From Alphaproteobacteria bacterium (GTDB lineage: Bacteria > Pseudomonadota > Alphaproteobacteria > CAAHEQ01 > UBA3637), in NCBI GenBank assembly GCA_017457425.1, contig JAFTHM010000086.1, positions 1-34,412 of the forward strand: 34,412 nucleotides of DNA, read 5' to 3'. Of this stretch, positions 1-4,286 are shown piece after piece. Numbering within the stretch: position 1 is the stretch's first letter; each line of letters opens with the position of its first letter. The notes beneath the pieces were generated by a model, which saw only the letters and a program-made list of their open reading frames with translations, was not told the DNA's origin and did not search any database. The position numbers and the translations under genes were made by a program.

Positions 1-30
1 ATATCTTTCAATCGGTGTTGTACGAGCCAT
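1..30 (-). CDS. fusA: Elongation factor G, N-terminal fragment (runs off window)
   Basis: Only the first ten codons are inside the window, on the minus strand. They read MARTTPIERY, the usual start of bacterial EF-G (continuing YRNIGI in the family). An AGGGGGAA-type ribosome site lies just upstream, in the short gap after the rpsG stop. EF-G is the GTPase that drives translocation on the ribosome. The order rpsL-rpsG-fusA is the classical str operon, which supports the call despite the short fragment. Confidence 0.85.
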   Translation of the reverse strand, partial: MARTTPIERY

Positions 31-39
31 GTGTTCCCC

Positions 40-510
40 CTACCATTTAAAGTGAGCAAAAGCTTTGTTAGCATCAGCCATACGGTGTGTATCTTCACGT
101 TTACGGATGGCATTACCACGATTGTTATAAGCATCTTGCAATTCGCCGAACAAACGTTGTTCCATTGTTTTTTCACTGCGACCACGAGCGGCGGCAATAA
201 TCCAACGAATGGCTAAAGCTTGTTGACGATCCGGACGAACTTCTGTCGGAACTTGGTAAGTTGCACCACCAACACGACGAGAACGAACTTCCACTTGAGG
301 TTTCACATTGTTCAAAGCTTCTGTAAAGATTTCCAAAGCCGGTTTTTTGATAGCGGCTTCTAATCTGTCAAAAGCACCATAAACAACAGCTTCAGCAATG
401 GATTTTTTACCATCGTACATTAAGCTGTTCATAAATTTCATAACGACAACGTTGCCATATTTGGCATCCGGTGTCACTTCACGTTTTACTGCTGCGTGTC
501 TACGAGACAT
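40..510 (-). CDS. rpsG: 30S ribosomal protein S7
   Basis: The 156-residue product is the normal length for S7. It starts [11 protein letters not shown] and carries the family segments [16 protein letters not shown] near residue 25, [21 protein letters not shown] near residue 80, and a basic C-terminal half ending AFAHFKW. S7 nucleates assembly of the 3' domain of 16S rRNA in the small subunit head and contacts E-site tRNA. It lies 11 nt downstream of rpsL and just upstream of fusA on the same strand, so the three are almost certainly co-transcribed. Nothing in it looks unusual. Confidence 0.98.
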
Positions 511-521
511 AATTCACTCTC

Positions 522-893
522 CTATTTAGGGCGTTTAGCACCGTATAAAGAACGGCTTTGTTTACGTTTAGCAACGCCTTGAGTATCAAGCGTACCACGG
601 ATAATATGATAACGAACACCAGGCAAGTCCTTTACACGACCGCCACGAATCATAACGACTGAGTGTTCTTGTAAGTTGTGACCTTCACCAGGAATGTAGC
701 AAGTCACTTCGAATCCATTTGTTAAACGAACACGAGCTACTTTACGCAAAGCAGAGTTCGGTTTTTTCGGTGTTGTTGTATAAACACGTGTACAAACCCC
801 ACGACGTTGAGGGCATTCTTGCAAAGCTGGCACTTTATCTCTGGCCACTTTGGCTTTCCGCGGTTTGCGGATTAATTGGTTAATTGTAGGCAT
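522..893 (-). CDS. rpsL: 30S ribosomal protein S12
   Basis: The 123-residue product matches the S12 family over its whole length: [13 protein letters not shown] at the start, [21 protein letters not shown] in the centre, [28 protein letters not shown] after it, and a basic [15 protein letters not shown] tail. S12 sits in the decoding centre and controls tRNA selection. The classical streptomycin-resistance lysines appear wild type: KPNSAL holds the Lys43 equivalent and GRVKDLPG the Lys88 equivalent. This is the first gene of the str operon; the promoter at 1073-1101 implies a 5' leader of about 170 nt. Confidence 0.98.
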
Positions 894-1072
894 TAATTTA
901 TTCCTTTTTATCTACCTATTACAAAAAATCTTTCAACAACCTATTTCAGGCGGTCAAAAGCACGAAATTTCAAATCCATCAAATTAACTTATTGATTTCA
1001 TTGACTACTTTGTTAAACAACTTCACTTTAAAATACCCAAAAATGGGACGAATCGTTTTCTAAAGTACGCTT

Positions 1073-1101
1073 ATTAAAGCATATTTTTGTCATTAAGTCA
1101 A
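1073..1101 (-). promoter_or_regulatory. Sigma70-type promoter of the str operon
   Basis: On the minus strand TTGACT (1101-1096) and TTTAAT (1078-1073) are separated by exactly 17 bp. The position fits transcription of rpsL-rpsG-fusA with a long leader. The leader contains a small CCCA-TTTT-TGGG hairpin near 1037-1048. A 13-bp direct repeat AATAAAAAGACAG lies upstream at 1113-1125 and 1155-1167, 42 bp apart. The second copy overlaps the terminator tail of the regulator gene, so the repeat may be coincidental. Confidence 0.75.
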
Positions 1102-1154
1102 GCACTTTTTTGAATAAAAAGACAGTAATTTTTCATTATTTACACAATATATAT

Positions 1155-1185
1155 AATAAAAAGACAGCCATTTTATTAAGCTGCC
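1155..1185 (-). terminator. Intrinsic terminator of the XRE-type regulator
   Basis: Read on the minus strand, GGCAGC (1185-1180) pairs with GCTGTC (1168-1163) with one G-U pair across an 11-nt loop. TTTTTATT follows at once. It lies 30 nt past the regulator stop codon. Confidence 0.65.
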
Positions 1186-1217
1186 CTTTTGTAAAACAAT
1201 TAAACAAATCTTCTCAA

Positions 1218-1553
1218 TTAATCCCTTGGTGCTTTTATCAAATTGCGAATCGCACGTACATATTCGGGATTTTGATCTTGAAGTTCATGCATAATTTCCA
1301 CCAAATCAGATGATAAATCTTCAATGGTAAGCAATGGCGCCTCTAAAAACAACTGATAGACCTCAACACCCAGCACATCGGCAATTTCATTGACGGTAGA
1401 AATTTTCGTACTGGAGATACCATTTTCAAGTTGACACACCATTTCAACAGTTTTGTGGATTCGCTGCGCCAGTTGCGCTTGTGTAATCTTTTTTAACTTG
1501 CGATACTTACGAATATTTTGTGATAAAATCAAGCTAGCGCTGTCTTTTGCCAT
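1218..1553 (-). CDS. XRE-family helix-turn-helix transcriptional regulator
   Basis: This is a 111-residue protein. Residues ~9-70 form an XRE/Cro-type helix-turn-helix: SQNIRKYRKLKKITQAQLAQRI, then VEMVCQLENGISSTKISTVNEIADVLGV. The remaining C-terminal ~40 residues are acidic and probably helical. Such proteins bind DNA as dimers and often repress their own gene. It is divergent from the autotransporter at 1802. The 248-bp gap between them holds the poly-C promoter and a pair of 11-bp direct repeats, so it is a natural candidate regulator of the autotransporter. That is inference from position. The start is set by AAAAGGAATT upstream of ATG. Confidence 0.85.
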   Translation of the reverse strand: MAKDSASLILSQNIRKYRKLKKITQAQLAQRIHKTVEMVCQLENGISSTKISTVNEIADVLGVEVYQLFLEAPLLTIEDLSSDLVEIMHELQDQNPEYVRAIRNLIKAPRD

Positions 1554-1592
1554 TTTTTTTAATTCCTTTTAATTTTTATATTGCAATTAAAT

Positions 1593-1633
1593 TTAAAATA
1601 TGCTCAAATCATTAATAGTTGGTTAAAATATGC
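1593..1633. promoter_or_regulatory. Candidate operator: paired 11-bp direct repeats
   Basis: TTAAAATATGC occurs at 1593-1603 and again at 1623-1633, a spacing of 30 bp (about three helical turns). The pair lies in the shared upstream region of the XRE regulator and the autotransporter. Two sites on the same DNA face are typical of dimeric repressors. No binding data exist, and the region is AT-rich, so chance similarity is possible. Confidence 0.35.
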
Positions 1634-1699
1634 AATAAAATTTCAATCAATGCAAGTTTTTTTTGAAAATATTTTTTTTGAAAAGGAGTAAAAAAATGC

Positions 1700-1728
1700 T
1701 TGACATACCCCCCCCCCCCCGTTATATT
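1700..1728 (+). promoter_or_regulatory. Autotransporter promoter with 13-C tract between -35 and -10 (probable phase-variable switch)
   Basis: TTGACA (1700-1705) is a perfect -35 box and TATATT (1723-1728) a good -10 box, separated by exactly 17 bp. Of those 17 bp, 13 are an uninterrupted C run (1708-1720). A homopolymer in this place changes length by polymerase slippage and moves the -35/-10 distance away from the optimum; this is the known mechanism of phase variation at Neisseria porA and opc. The sequenced molecule has the ideal 17-bp spacing, so it should represent an ON state. The autotransporter ATG is about 70 nt downstream. Confidence 0.85.
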
Positions 1729-1759: not shown

Positions 1760-1801
1760 TAAAGATTTAATCTAAGGCAACTAATAGAGAAAGGAGACTT
1801 T

Positions 1802-4234
1802 ATGAAATACTCAAATACAGCCTTAAAAAACCTGAGCGCCCGTTATGGCAAAGTTTTGCGTAAGTGCGCTTATTTAAATGCTATCGTTTTAACAGCCGCA
1901 ATGATGGCAACACCGGCAATGGCCGAAACAGGCATCGCCTCAAGCGATTCTCCTGTTACTAAAACATGGGCAGCCGATATGACTAGTGGCAAGTATCAAG
2001 AATCATTAGGACATAGATTGCAATTAATCGGTATGACCGAAGGAAAATACAGTTATGATGCAGATAACTTGGCCTTGACTGTTTCCGCATCTGATAACAA
2101 CAAAATCAGTGCCACAAAATTCCATACAGGTATTCAAACATTTAAAGCCGAAGACAAACACCCGACTTTCACAGTGGTTGGTGATGCCAATACAACAATT
2201 GACTTAAGTGCAACCGGAACAGAATGGAATATCGTTTCCCGCTTTTCCAAAATGAATATCGGCTCGGCGAATTCGGCTATCGGCACACTTAATGTTACAA
2301 ACGAAAATATCGAAACCGGCAGTCTAATTTACGTTACCAGCGGAAACAGCAAAGCTGACGGAAATGTACACGAATTAAACATCTATGCCAATAACATTTC
2401 ACTGAAAACGAATGGTACGGCTATTACAGGTAACGAAGGTAAATTAACTTTGGTTGCCAATGAAAAATTGGACATTACCGGTGATATTAATGGATATAAC
2501 GATGTTTATGGCGGACATGCCGATTTAACATTTAACATCAACCAAAATGCCGGCAATACCGCCATCACGACAATCAAAGGCAATATCGATGCCGCCAAAG
2601 GATCCGTTGTCAATATCGGATTAAAAGGGGCCGGTTCTTCCATTACAGGTGATTTATTGGTCAGCGCCAACGGAACAACATTACCGGGTGGTGAAATTAA
2701 TTTAGGATTCGGAACTGGTGGTTCAATTACCGGTAATATGACGGCTCAAGATGAAGGCCATATCTCCATTTCCGGTGATGATTTAGTGGCTGTAAACGGC
2801 AACATCAGCATTGATGACAAATCTTCATTAACAGCCAGCAATATTTCCCATAATTCCGGTACAATCGCTAACGATGGTACATTAACATTGGGAAATAACA
2901 TTGTCTTGACAGAAGGTGTCACAGGTACCGGTTCCGTTGTATTTAAAGAAGGTTCTTCATTGAAAACAGCTCTGAACAATTCTACCTCTTTGATTTCCGG
3001 CAATACTGTCACAGGTACAACTTCTTTAGTCATTGACAATGGAACAACAAATGCCACATTGAATATGTTTGATGCTTCTCAAAGCGGATTTACATTTGCC
3101 AATAACACATTGTATGATATTATTGAAGATACAACAACCGCCGGAACATATAACATTTCTAAAAAATCCACAGAAGCTATTACGGAGTCTTTGACATCTG
3201 CCGGTGCCGATACGACAACGGCTGAAACAGTGGCTGCCGTTACAGAGGCTCAACCGACGACTCCGGAGGCTGCCGCCATTGTAGAAGCTATTACAACGGC
3301 CGCTCAATCGGGTGATATCGCTGCGGTTGCCGAAATCACGGAAAAAATCAATCCGACAACAACACCAGTTGTGCAACAACAATCCGTTGCTATGGCTTCC
3401 CAAATCTTCAACGTAACGGGTAATCGTATGAGTGCTCATGGTTTTGGACGCAGCGGTGGTGACCTTAACATAACGGTTGGTCCGTGGATTCAAGGGTTAT
3501 ACAACAAAACACACAACAGCCAAGGCGTCGGTTTTGACGGATACAGCCAAGGTTTTGCCCTCGGTTTAGACTTTGATGTTTGCAAAAACTTCATGTGGGG
3601 TTTCGGTTACGGTTATACGGCAACAGATGTTAAATCAAACGGCCGTAAAACTCAAATCTATGCCGATAACATCTTCTTATACGGTAAATATCAACCAAGT
3701 AAGTGGTATGTCAGCGGTATTGCCAACTATGGCCATTCCAACTATAAGGAAGCTGCCTTGGGCTTAACCAGCAAATACAACGTGGACACATACTCTGCAG
3801 CCGCTACAGTCGGTTACCAAGAAGGTATCTTTGATAACTATGCTGGACTTCGTTATAGCTATATCACACCGGACAGCTATTCCAATGGCTTAACAACGGT
3901 TGAAGGTAAAAACGCTCAAGTCGGTACTGCCGTTATCGGAACAAAGATTTCCAAAGCTTACAAAACAGATGGAGCCGTTTGGAAACCGGAAGTTCGTTTG
4001 GCTGCCACATATGATATCAAATCCGATAATTCTTCCAGCATTGTCGGTATCGTCGGCGGTTCCAGCACTTACATGGTGGAAGGCAAACGTCAAAAACGCT
4101 TTGCTGTTGAAGCCGGTGTCGGTTTAACAACAACAGTTGCCCGTAATTTAGATATTACGTTAAATTACGATGCTAACTTGCGTTCAAAACAAACATCTCA
4201 AACGGGTTCTGTGAAGTTGAAATACAGCTTCTAA
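1802..4234 (+). CDS. Autotransporter (type Va secreted passenger plus beta-barrel)
   Basis: The 810-residue protein begins with a long signal region (residues 1-~41, MKYSNTALKNLSARYGKVLRK then a hydrophobic stretch ending TPAMAET). Extended signal peptides of this kind are common in autotransporters. Residues ~45-440 are Gly/Asn/Thr-rich with repeated short beta strands, as in a beta-helix passenger. An Ala/Thr/Glu-rich linker follows at ~455-520. The C-terminal ~270 residues alternate strands and turns (GPWIQGLYNKTHNSQGVGFDGYSQGFALGLDF onward) and end SVKLKYSF with terminal Phe, the signature of an outer-membrane barrel recognised by BAM. The passenger is presumably displayed at the surface as an adhesin or similar; its ligand is unknown. 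The start follows AAAGGAGACTTT. Expression is probably phase-variable through the poly-C promoter, and a strong terminator follows. Confidence 0.9.
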   Translation: MKYSNTALKNLSARYGKVLRKCAYLNAIVLTAAMMATPAMAETGIASSDSPVTKTWAADMTSGKYQESLGHRLQLIGMTEGKYSYDADNLALTVSASDNNKISATKFHTGIQTFKAEDKHPTFTVVGDANTTIDLSATGTEWNIVSRFSKMNIGSANSAIGTLNVTNENIETGSLIYVTSGNSKADGNVHELNIYANNISLKTNGTAITGNEGKLTLVANEKLDITGDINGYNDVYGGHADLTFNINQNAGNTAITTIKGNIDAAKGSVVNIGLKGAGSSITGDLLVSANGTTLPGGEINLGFGTGGSITGNMTAQDEGHISISGDDLVAVNGNISIDDKSSLTASNISHNSGTIANDGTLTLGNNIVLTEGVTGTGSVVFKEGSSLKTALNNSTSLISGNTVTGTTSLVIDNGTTNATLNMFDASQSGFTFANNTLYDIIEDTTTAGTYNISKKSTEAITESLTSAGADTTTAETVAAVTEAQPTTPEAAAIVEAITTAAQSGDIAAVAEITEKINPTTTPVVQQQSVAMASQIFNVTGNRMSAHGFGRSGGDLNITVGPWIQGLYNKTHNSQGVGFDGYSQGFALGLDFDVCKNFMWGFGYGYTATDVKSNGRKTQIYADNIFLYGKYQPSKWYVSGIANYGHSNYKEAALGLTSKYNVDTYSAAATVGYQEGIFDNYAGLRYSYITPDSYSNGLTTVEGKNAQVGTAVIGTKISKAYKTDGAVWKPEVRLAATYDIKSDNSSSIVGIVGGSSTYMVEGKRQKRFAVEAGVGLTTTVARNLDITLNYDANLRSKQTSQTGSVKLKYSF

Positions 4235-4255
4235 TCCTTTGGGATAAAACAAAAG

Positions 4256-4286
4256 ACACTCTCACAAAACGTGGGAGTGTTTTTTT
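4256..4286 (+). terminator. Intrinsic terminator of the autotransporter
   Basis: ACACTCTCAC (4256-4265) pairs with GTGGGAGTGT (4271-4280), ten base pairs with one G-U, loop AAAAC. A run of T follows. It lies 21 nt past the stop codon. Confidence 0.9.

What the first reader, a model, noticed from the sequence alone, without database searches (positions are those of the whole stretch)
1700..1728. Phase-variable autotransporter promoter: 13 C between a perfect -35 and -10
TTGACA and TATATT stand exactly 17 bp apart, with 13 of those bases an uninterrupted C run, an extreme outlier in this AT-rich DNA. At least three other promoters in the window use the same 17-bp TTGACA spacing (32844, 33453, 29384), so the reading is well supported. 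Slipped-strand changes in the tract would shift spacing and switch or grade expression of a surface protein, as at Neisseria porA and opc. This gives the bacterium a mixed population for adhesion or immune evasion.
Basis: partly seen in the sequence, partly recalled or inferred. Interest (0 to 1): 0.82.

Follow-up and report, generated by a model that had tools for sequence, protein, structure and literature searches.

The report
Slippery poly-C promoter of a surface protein
In an uncultured gut bacterium, 13 cytosines fill most of the gap between the two recognition sites of a surface protein's promoter, so copying slips would tune that protein up or down; the same layout recurs at dozens of genes in related species, mostly pilin-like proteins.

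Summary
TTGACA (1700-1705) and TATATT (1723-1728, 5 of 6 to consensus) stand 17 bp apart. C13 (1708-1720), the longest C/G run in the 1.34-Mb genome, lies between them, 81 bp before the ATG of an 810-aa autotransporter (PF03797).

In 43 held genomes of the same family, 46 sites have TTGACA, a run of at least 8 G or C, then a -10-like hexamer (8 genomes, 5 genera). The reversed-pattern control finds none. In one relative, copies of one promoter (two of them 109/110 alike downstream) carry runs of 9 to 19 G. In the closest relative the contig ends inside this very tract, and the passenger domain beyond is too diverged to align although the flanks are mostly 93-99% identical. A more distant congener has the gene pair without the tract.

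Best explanation: slipped-strand phase variation of promoter strength, as for gonococcal fetA; C13 gives the optimal 17-bp spacing (ON). No reads were available, so length variation at this locus is inferred. It is a new member of a known kind. The broader result is a promoter-tract 'phasome', mostly driving prepilin-like proteins, in an uncultured gut alphaproteobacterial lineage.

The parts
1700..1705 (+). -35 hexamer TTGACA
1708..1720 (+). C13 tract inside the 17-bp spacer (1706-1722)
   Evidence: longest C/G run of the genome
1723..1728 (+). -10 hexamer TATATT (5 of 6 to consensus)
1791..1796 (+). ribosome-binding site AAGGAG
   Evidence: read directly from the sequence
1802..4234 (+). 810-aa autotransporter; passenger in the N-terminal part, PF03797 barrel at residues 562-790
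   Evidence: N-terminal signal peptide judged by eye
4251..4285 (+). terminator-like hairpin after the gene
1218..1553 (-). divergent 111-aa XRE-type (HTH_3) regulator, possible controller of the same intergenic region
   Evidence: the divergent pairing recurs in G001

Best explanation
It is a sigma-70-type promoter of an apparently monocistronic autotransporter gene, with a homopolymeric C tract making up 13 of the 17 spacer bases. Replication slippage would add or remove C, changing the -35/-10 spacing one base at a time. At C13 the spacing is 17 bp, the optimum, so the assembled state is ON; C12 and C14 would be weaker and longer departures nearly OFF. This gives graded, reversible, heritable variation in the amount of a surface protein. 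Shown here: the architecture, its rarity, its recurrence in relatives, and length differences among near-identical promoter copies in a relative. Inferred: slippage at this locus, its effect on transcription, and the benefit (changed adhesion, or escape from host antibody or phage).
For: Exact promoter geometry around the tract. The tract is an outlier in the genome. 46 TTGACA-G/C-tract sites followed by a -10-like hexamer in 8 of 43 genomes, with none in the reversed control. Copies of one promoter in G003 carry G19, G18, G8AG5 and G9-10. The sister genome shares the left flank and at least 7 C, and its contig breaks inside the tract. The downstream passenger is hypervariable between sisters while the flanks are 93-99% identical for the most part. 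Contig starts cluster near such tracts in relatives. Poly-C between -35 and -10 controls fetA in gonococcus (PMC5320596).
Against: No read data or second complete allele: length variation at this locus is not shown. Transcription start not mapped. The gene pairs in G001 lack the tract, so it is not conserved across the genus. Contig breaks and N gaps can also come from gene repeats or hard-to-sequence G/C runs.
Confidence: 0.8

Rival explanations
1. The promoter is real but the tract is a fairly stable, neutral spacer; expression is set by the divergent XRE-type regulator and not by slippage.
For: An XRE-type regulator lies divergently next to the gene and the pairing recurs in G001 without any tract.
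Against: A C13 run is not expected to stay by chance or be stable (established knowledge of homopolymer slippage). Tract promoters recur widely and differ in length between near-identical copies.
Confidence: 0.12
2. The C tract acts through its DNA structure (a G-quadruplex on the other strand, or stiff spacer DNA), or as a binding site, and not through its length.
For: 13 consecutive G on the template strand could form such structures (general knowledge).
Against: The tract sits precisely between two hexamers in many unrelated promoters, with C on the coding strand in some and G in others, which fits a spacer better than a strand-specific structure.
Confidence: 0.05
3. The run, or its length, is an assembly or sequencing artefact.
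For: A 154-contig metagenome assembly; homopolymer length is error-prone; some tracts in G001 abut short N gaps.
Against: A separate genome (G002) carries the same left flank and at least 7 C at the same place. The arrangement between two hexamers recurs with zero control hits.
Confidence: 0.03

Closest known systems
fetA (frpB) of Neisseria gonorrhoeae
   Same: Poly-C tract between -10 and -35 of a surface-protein promoter; lengths C10 to C14 are listed in different strains and expression changes with spacing (PMC5320596).
   Different: fetA encodes an outer-membrane receptor, not an autotransporter; betaproteobacterium; length variation and expression are shown there and not here.
porA and opc of Neisseria meningitidis
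   Same: Homopolymeric tract between -10 and -35, altered sigma-factor binding (PMC2791445).
   Different: Different gene products; for gonococcal porA the listed tract is a mixed T/G run (PMC5320596).
fim2/fim3/fimX promoters of Bordetella pertussis
   Same: C-stretch in a promoter of a surface structure, its length affects transcription (PMC1891110).
   Different: [quoted passage not shown] here it lies between a consensus -35 and -10, and no activator is implied.
Phase-variable autotransporters NalP and MspA of meningococcus
   Same: Autotransporters under homopolymer phase variation (PMC3723659, listed).
   Different: Their tracts lie within the coding sequence (abstract), so they switch by frameshift; here the tract is in the promoter.

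Membership tests
Promoter-spacer phase-variable genes (fetA/porA/opc type) | Homopolymeric tract lies between -35 and -10 | tested here: met
   TTGACA-TA-C13-GT-TATATT
Promoter-spacer phase-variable genes (fetA/porA/opc type) | Controls a surface or secreted protein | tested here: met
   PF03797 autotransporter 81 bp downstream of the tract
Promoter-spacer phase-variable genes (fetA/porA/opc type) | Tract length differs among strains or cells | tested here: inconclusive
   The only other allele breaks inside the tract; length differences are seen only for comparable promoters in a relative
Promoter-spacer phase-variable genes (fetA/porA/opc type) | Transcription changes with tract length | not testable with these tools
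   No expression data
Classical (type Va) autotransporters | C-terminal PF03797 beta-barrel ending in an aromatic residue, preceded by a passenger and a signal peptide | tested here: met
   PF03797 E=6.7e-33 at residues 562-790; the protein ends in F; signal peptide by eye only

The most novel reading that the evidence does not exclude
This family of uncultured gut Alphaproteobacteria runs a lineage-wide promoter phasome: dozens of sigma-70-type promoters have G/C tracts as spacers, in some species mostly in front of a large family of cysteine-rich proteins with type-IV-prepilin-like N-termini, so that each cell shows a random subset of pilin-like and autotransporter surface proteins.
Probability: 0.65. 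Interest if true: 0.7.

Novelty: new member of a known kind. Interest (0 to 1): 0.52.

Why it matters
Simple-repeat phase variation is known mainly from cultured pathogens such as Neisseria, Haemophilus, Campylobacter, Helicobacter and Bordetella. A fetA-type promoter switch in a small-genome, uncultured gut alphaproteobacterium, with dozens of copies of the same layout in its family, suggests that gut bacteria of this lineage also diversify their surface by slippage. It can be tested with existing metagenomic reads. The family is unusual in placing the tract in promoters, rather than only in coding sequence, at many genes at once.

Tried and rejected
A second complete allele of the locus was sought: genome contigs gave only the sister MAG RGIG6380, whose contigs break at the tract and inside the passenger; the leader 1721-1933 is not in its assembly. 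A gapped pattern scan of viral contigs gave 5 chance matches without a C run. An order-level search added no genomes beyond the same 43. The 5'-leader folds no better than shuffles (z -0.9). Loss of mismatch repair as a general cause was considered: MutS is found in most genomes, including G000 and tract-rich G009, but not in tract-rich G013, so it is at most a contributor. No paper on phase variation in this lineage was found in the held library; most subscription journals and preprints are not held. Laying the whole genome in the Python box was not available.

Full report
OBSERVATION. The window is contig 76 of a 1.34-Mb, 154-contig genome assembly. At 1700-1728 it reads TTGACA-TA-CCCCCCCCCCCCC-GT-TATATT: a perfect -35, a 17-bp spacer with 13 C, and a -10 of 5/6. 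It is the best-scoring promoter-like site in the first 5 kb (11 of 12). Apart from this tract no C run in the window exceeds 5 bases and no G run exceeds 6; 0.03 (first-order) or under 0.001 (second-order) runs of 13 or more are expected in the genome. The genome has only five C/G runs of 9 or more, and this is the longest.

SURROUNDINGS. The tract ends 81 bp before the ATG of an 810-aa protein with a PF03797 autotransporter barrel at residues 562-790. There is an AAGGAG ribosome site at 1791-1796 and a terminator-like hairpin at 4251-4285, so the gene looks monocistronic. Divergent to it is a 111-aa XRE-type regulator (1218-1553, minus). A similar divergent pairing occurs at two loci of congener G001.

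SISTER GENOMES. Its contig C203 starts with GGGGGGGTATGTCAAGC, that is, inside this very tract, and is 98.9% identical to window 1-1714. Its contig C46 picks the locus up again inside the autotransporter: the passenger there is first unalignable and then 65-78% identical, whereas the last part of the barrel and the following corA region are mostly 93-98% identical. The leader is missing from that assembly. So the tract is shared with at least 7 C, its full length in G002 is unknown, and the protein behind it has a hypervariable passenger, as expected of a surface antigen. The corresponding gene pairs in G001 have no tract; the simplest reading is that the tract arose within the genus.

RECURRENCE. 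A search of the 43 held genomes of the family for TTGACA, 0-10 bases, at least 8 G (or C), 0-18 bases, TANNNT gave hits in 8 genomes of 5 genera. The same pattern read backwards gave none in any genome. Collapsed by hand these are 46 sites. In about three quarters a -10-like hexamer follows the tract directly or within a few bases; the rest are weaker. Spacings run from 11 to 28 bp, with 14 of 46 at 16-18. In congener G001 there are TTGACA-ATG-C10-G-TATAAT (14 bp) and TTGACA-AAAC-G12-TATAAT (16 bp). In G003 four copies of one promoter have G19, G18, G8AG5 and G9-10, with a nearly unchanged downstream leader (L170 against L172: 109 of 110 bases). The lower ungapped counts of the other pairs come from shifts at a second C/T run in the leader and at the tract edge. 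This is the closest thing to direct evidence of hypermutability available here.

WHAT THE OTHER TRACT PROMOTERS DRIVE. In G009, G011, G013, G003 and G037 most sites lie upstream of genes whose products begin with, or contain near the start, a type-IV-prepilin-like segment (such as GRSMIEMLGVLAIIGVLSITALVGFTYAMNKHRANETI) and continue into often cysteine-rich regions, up to about 1050 residues. Of two tested, one passes the Pfam N_methyl cut-off (21.7 against 21.2 bits) and one falls below it (17.8). One other drives an ankyrin-repeat protein (L173). A second class of tract lies just after a possible start codon (for example L078, L086, L088, and L096 with C25), where it would switch by frameshift; these frames were not examined further. 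Contig starts cluster near tracts (G013 14 of 60 against 0.55 expected, G009 16 of 73 against 2.4), and several tracts in G001 abut short N gaps. This fits length heterogeneity, but repeated genes and hard-to-sequence G runs would do the same.

MECHANISM. Slipped-strand mispairing in C13 would change the spacing by one base per event. For sigma-70 promoters 17 bp is the optimum (established knowledge), so the assembled state is ON and neighbours are weaker. This predicts graded expression more than a strict switch. Shown: architecture, rarity, recurrence, and length differences in a relative. Inferred: slippage here, effect on transcription, benefit to the cell. MutS is encoded in G000, in two pieces on two contigs, and is present in most relatives; it was not found in tract-rich G013.

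COMPARISON. The closest known case is gonococcal fetA, with a poly-C tract between -10 and -35 listed at C10, C11, C13 and C14 in different strains and expression changing with length (PMC5320596). Meningococcal porA and opc have homopolymers in the same place (PMC2791445). Bordetella fim promoters use a C-stretch between an activator region and the -10 (PMC1891110). The present locus works like fetA; as a demonstrated phase-variable promoter it still lacks length-variation and expression data. No report for this lineage turned up in the held library, which is no proof of absence.

VERDICT. The wider promoter phasome of the family, with its prepilin-like targets, is the more novel part.

Noticed in passing
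L153-L184 (G009, G011, G003, G013) and L189 (G037): Most tract promoters in relatives precede a large family of long, often cysteine-rich proteins with type-IV-prepilin-like N-termini; a phase-variable pilin-like repertoire.
   Followed up: partly
own genome contig 118: L007 888-2450, L009 162-1847: One open frame fuses GT11 (fucosyltransferase-type) and GT6 (blood-group A/B transferase-type) domains and carries an in-frame G10 tract near its start and C9 near its end; it recalls phase-variable fucosyltransferase genes of Helicobacter (from memory).
   Followed up: partly
L078, L082, L086, L088, L092, L094, L096 (G013); L052, L112, L118 (G009): C tracts of 12-25 bases follow an ATG by about 20-30 bases, with similar flanks at several loci: a possible second, translational class of phase-variable genes.
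   Followed up: no
window about 1802-3600 against L012/L045: The autotransporter passenger is unalignable or 65-78% identical between sister genomes whose flanks are mostly 93-99% identical, which suggests recombination or diversifying selection.
   Followed up: partly
P0001 residues 1-44 and relatives: The N-terminal leader (MKYSNTALKNLSARYGKVLRK...) is 40-60% identical in many otherwise different autotransporters of the family: an extended signal-peptide region.
   Followed up: no
G013 (whole genome): No MutS hit in a 94%-complete genome with 60 C/G runs of 9 or more; loss of mismatch repair may explain its very long tracts.
   Followed up: no
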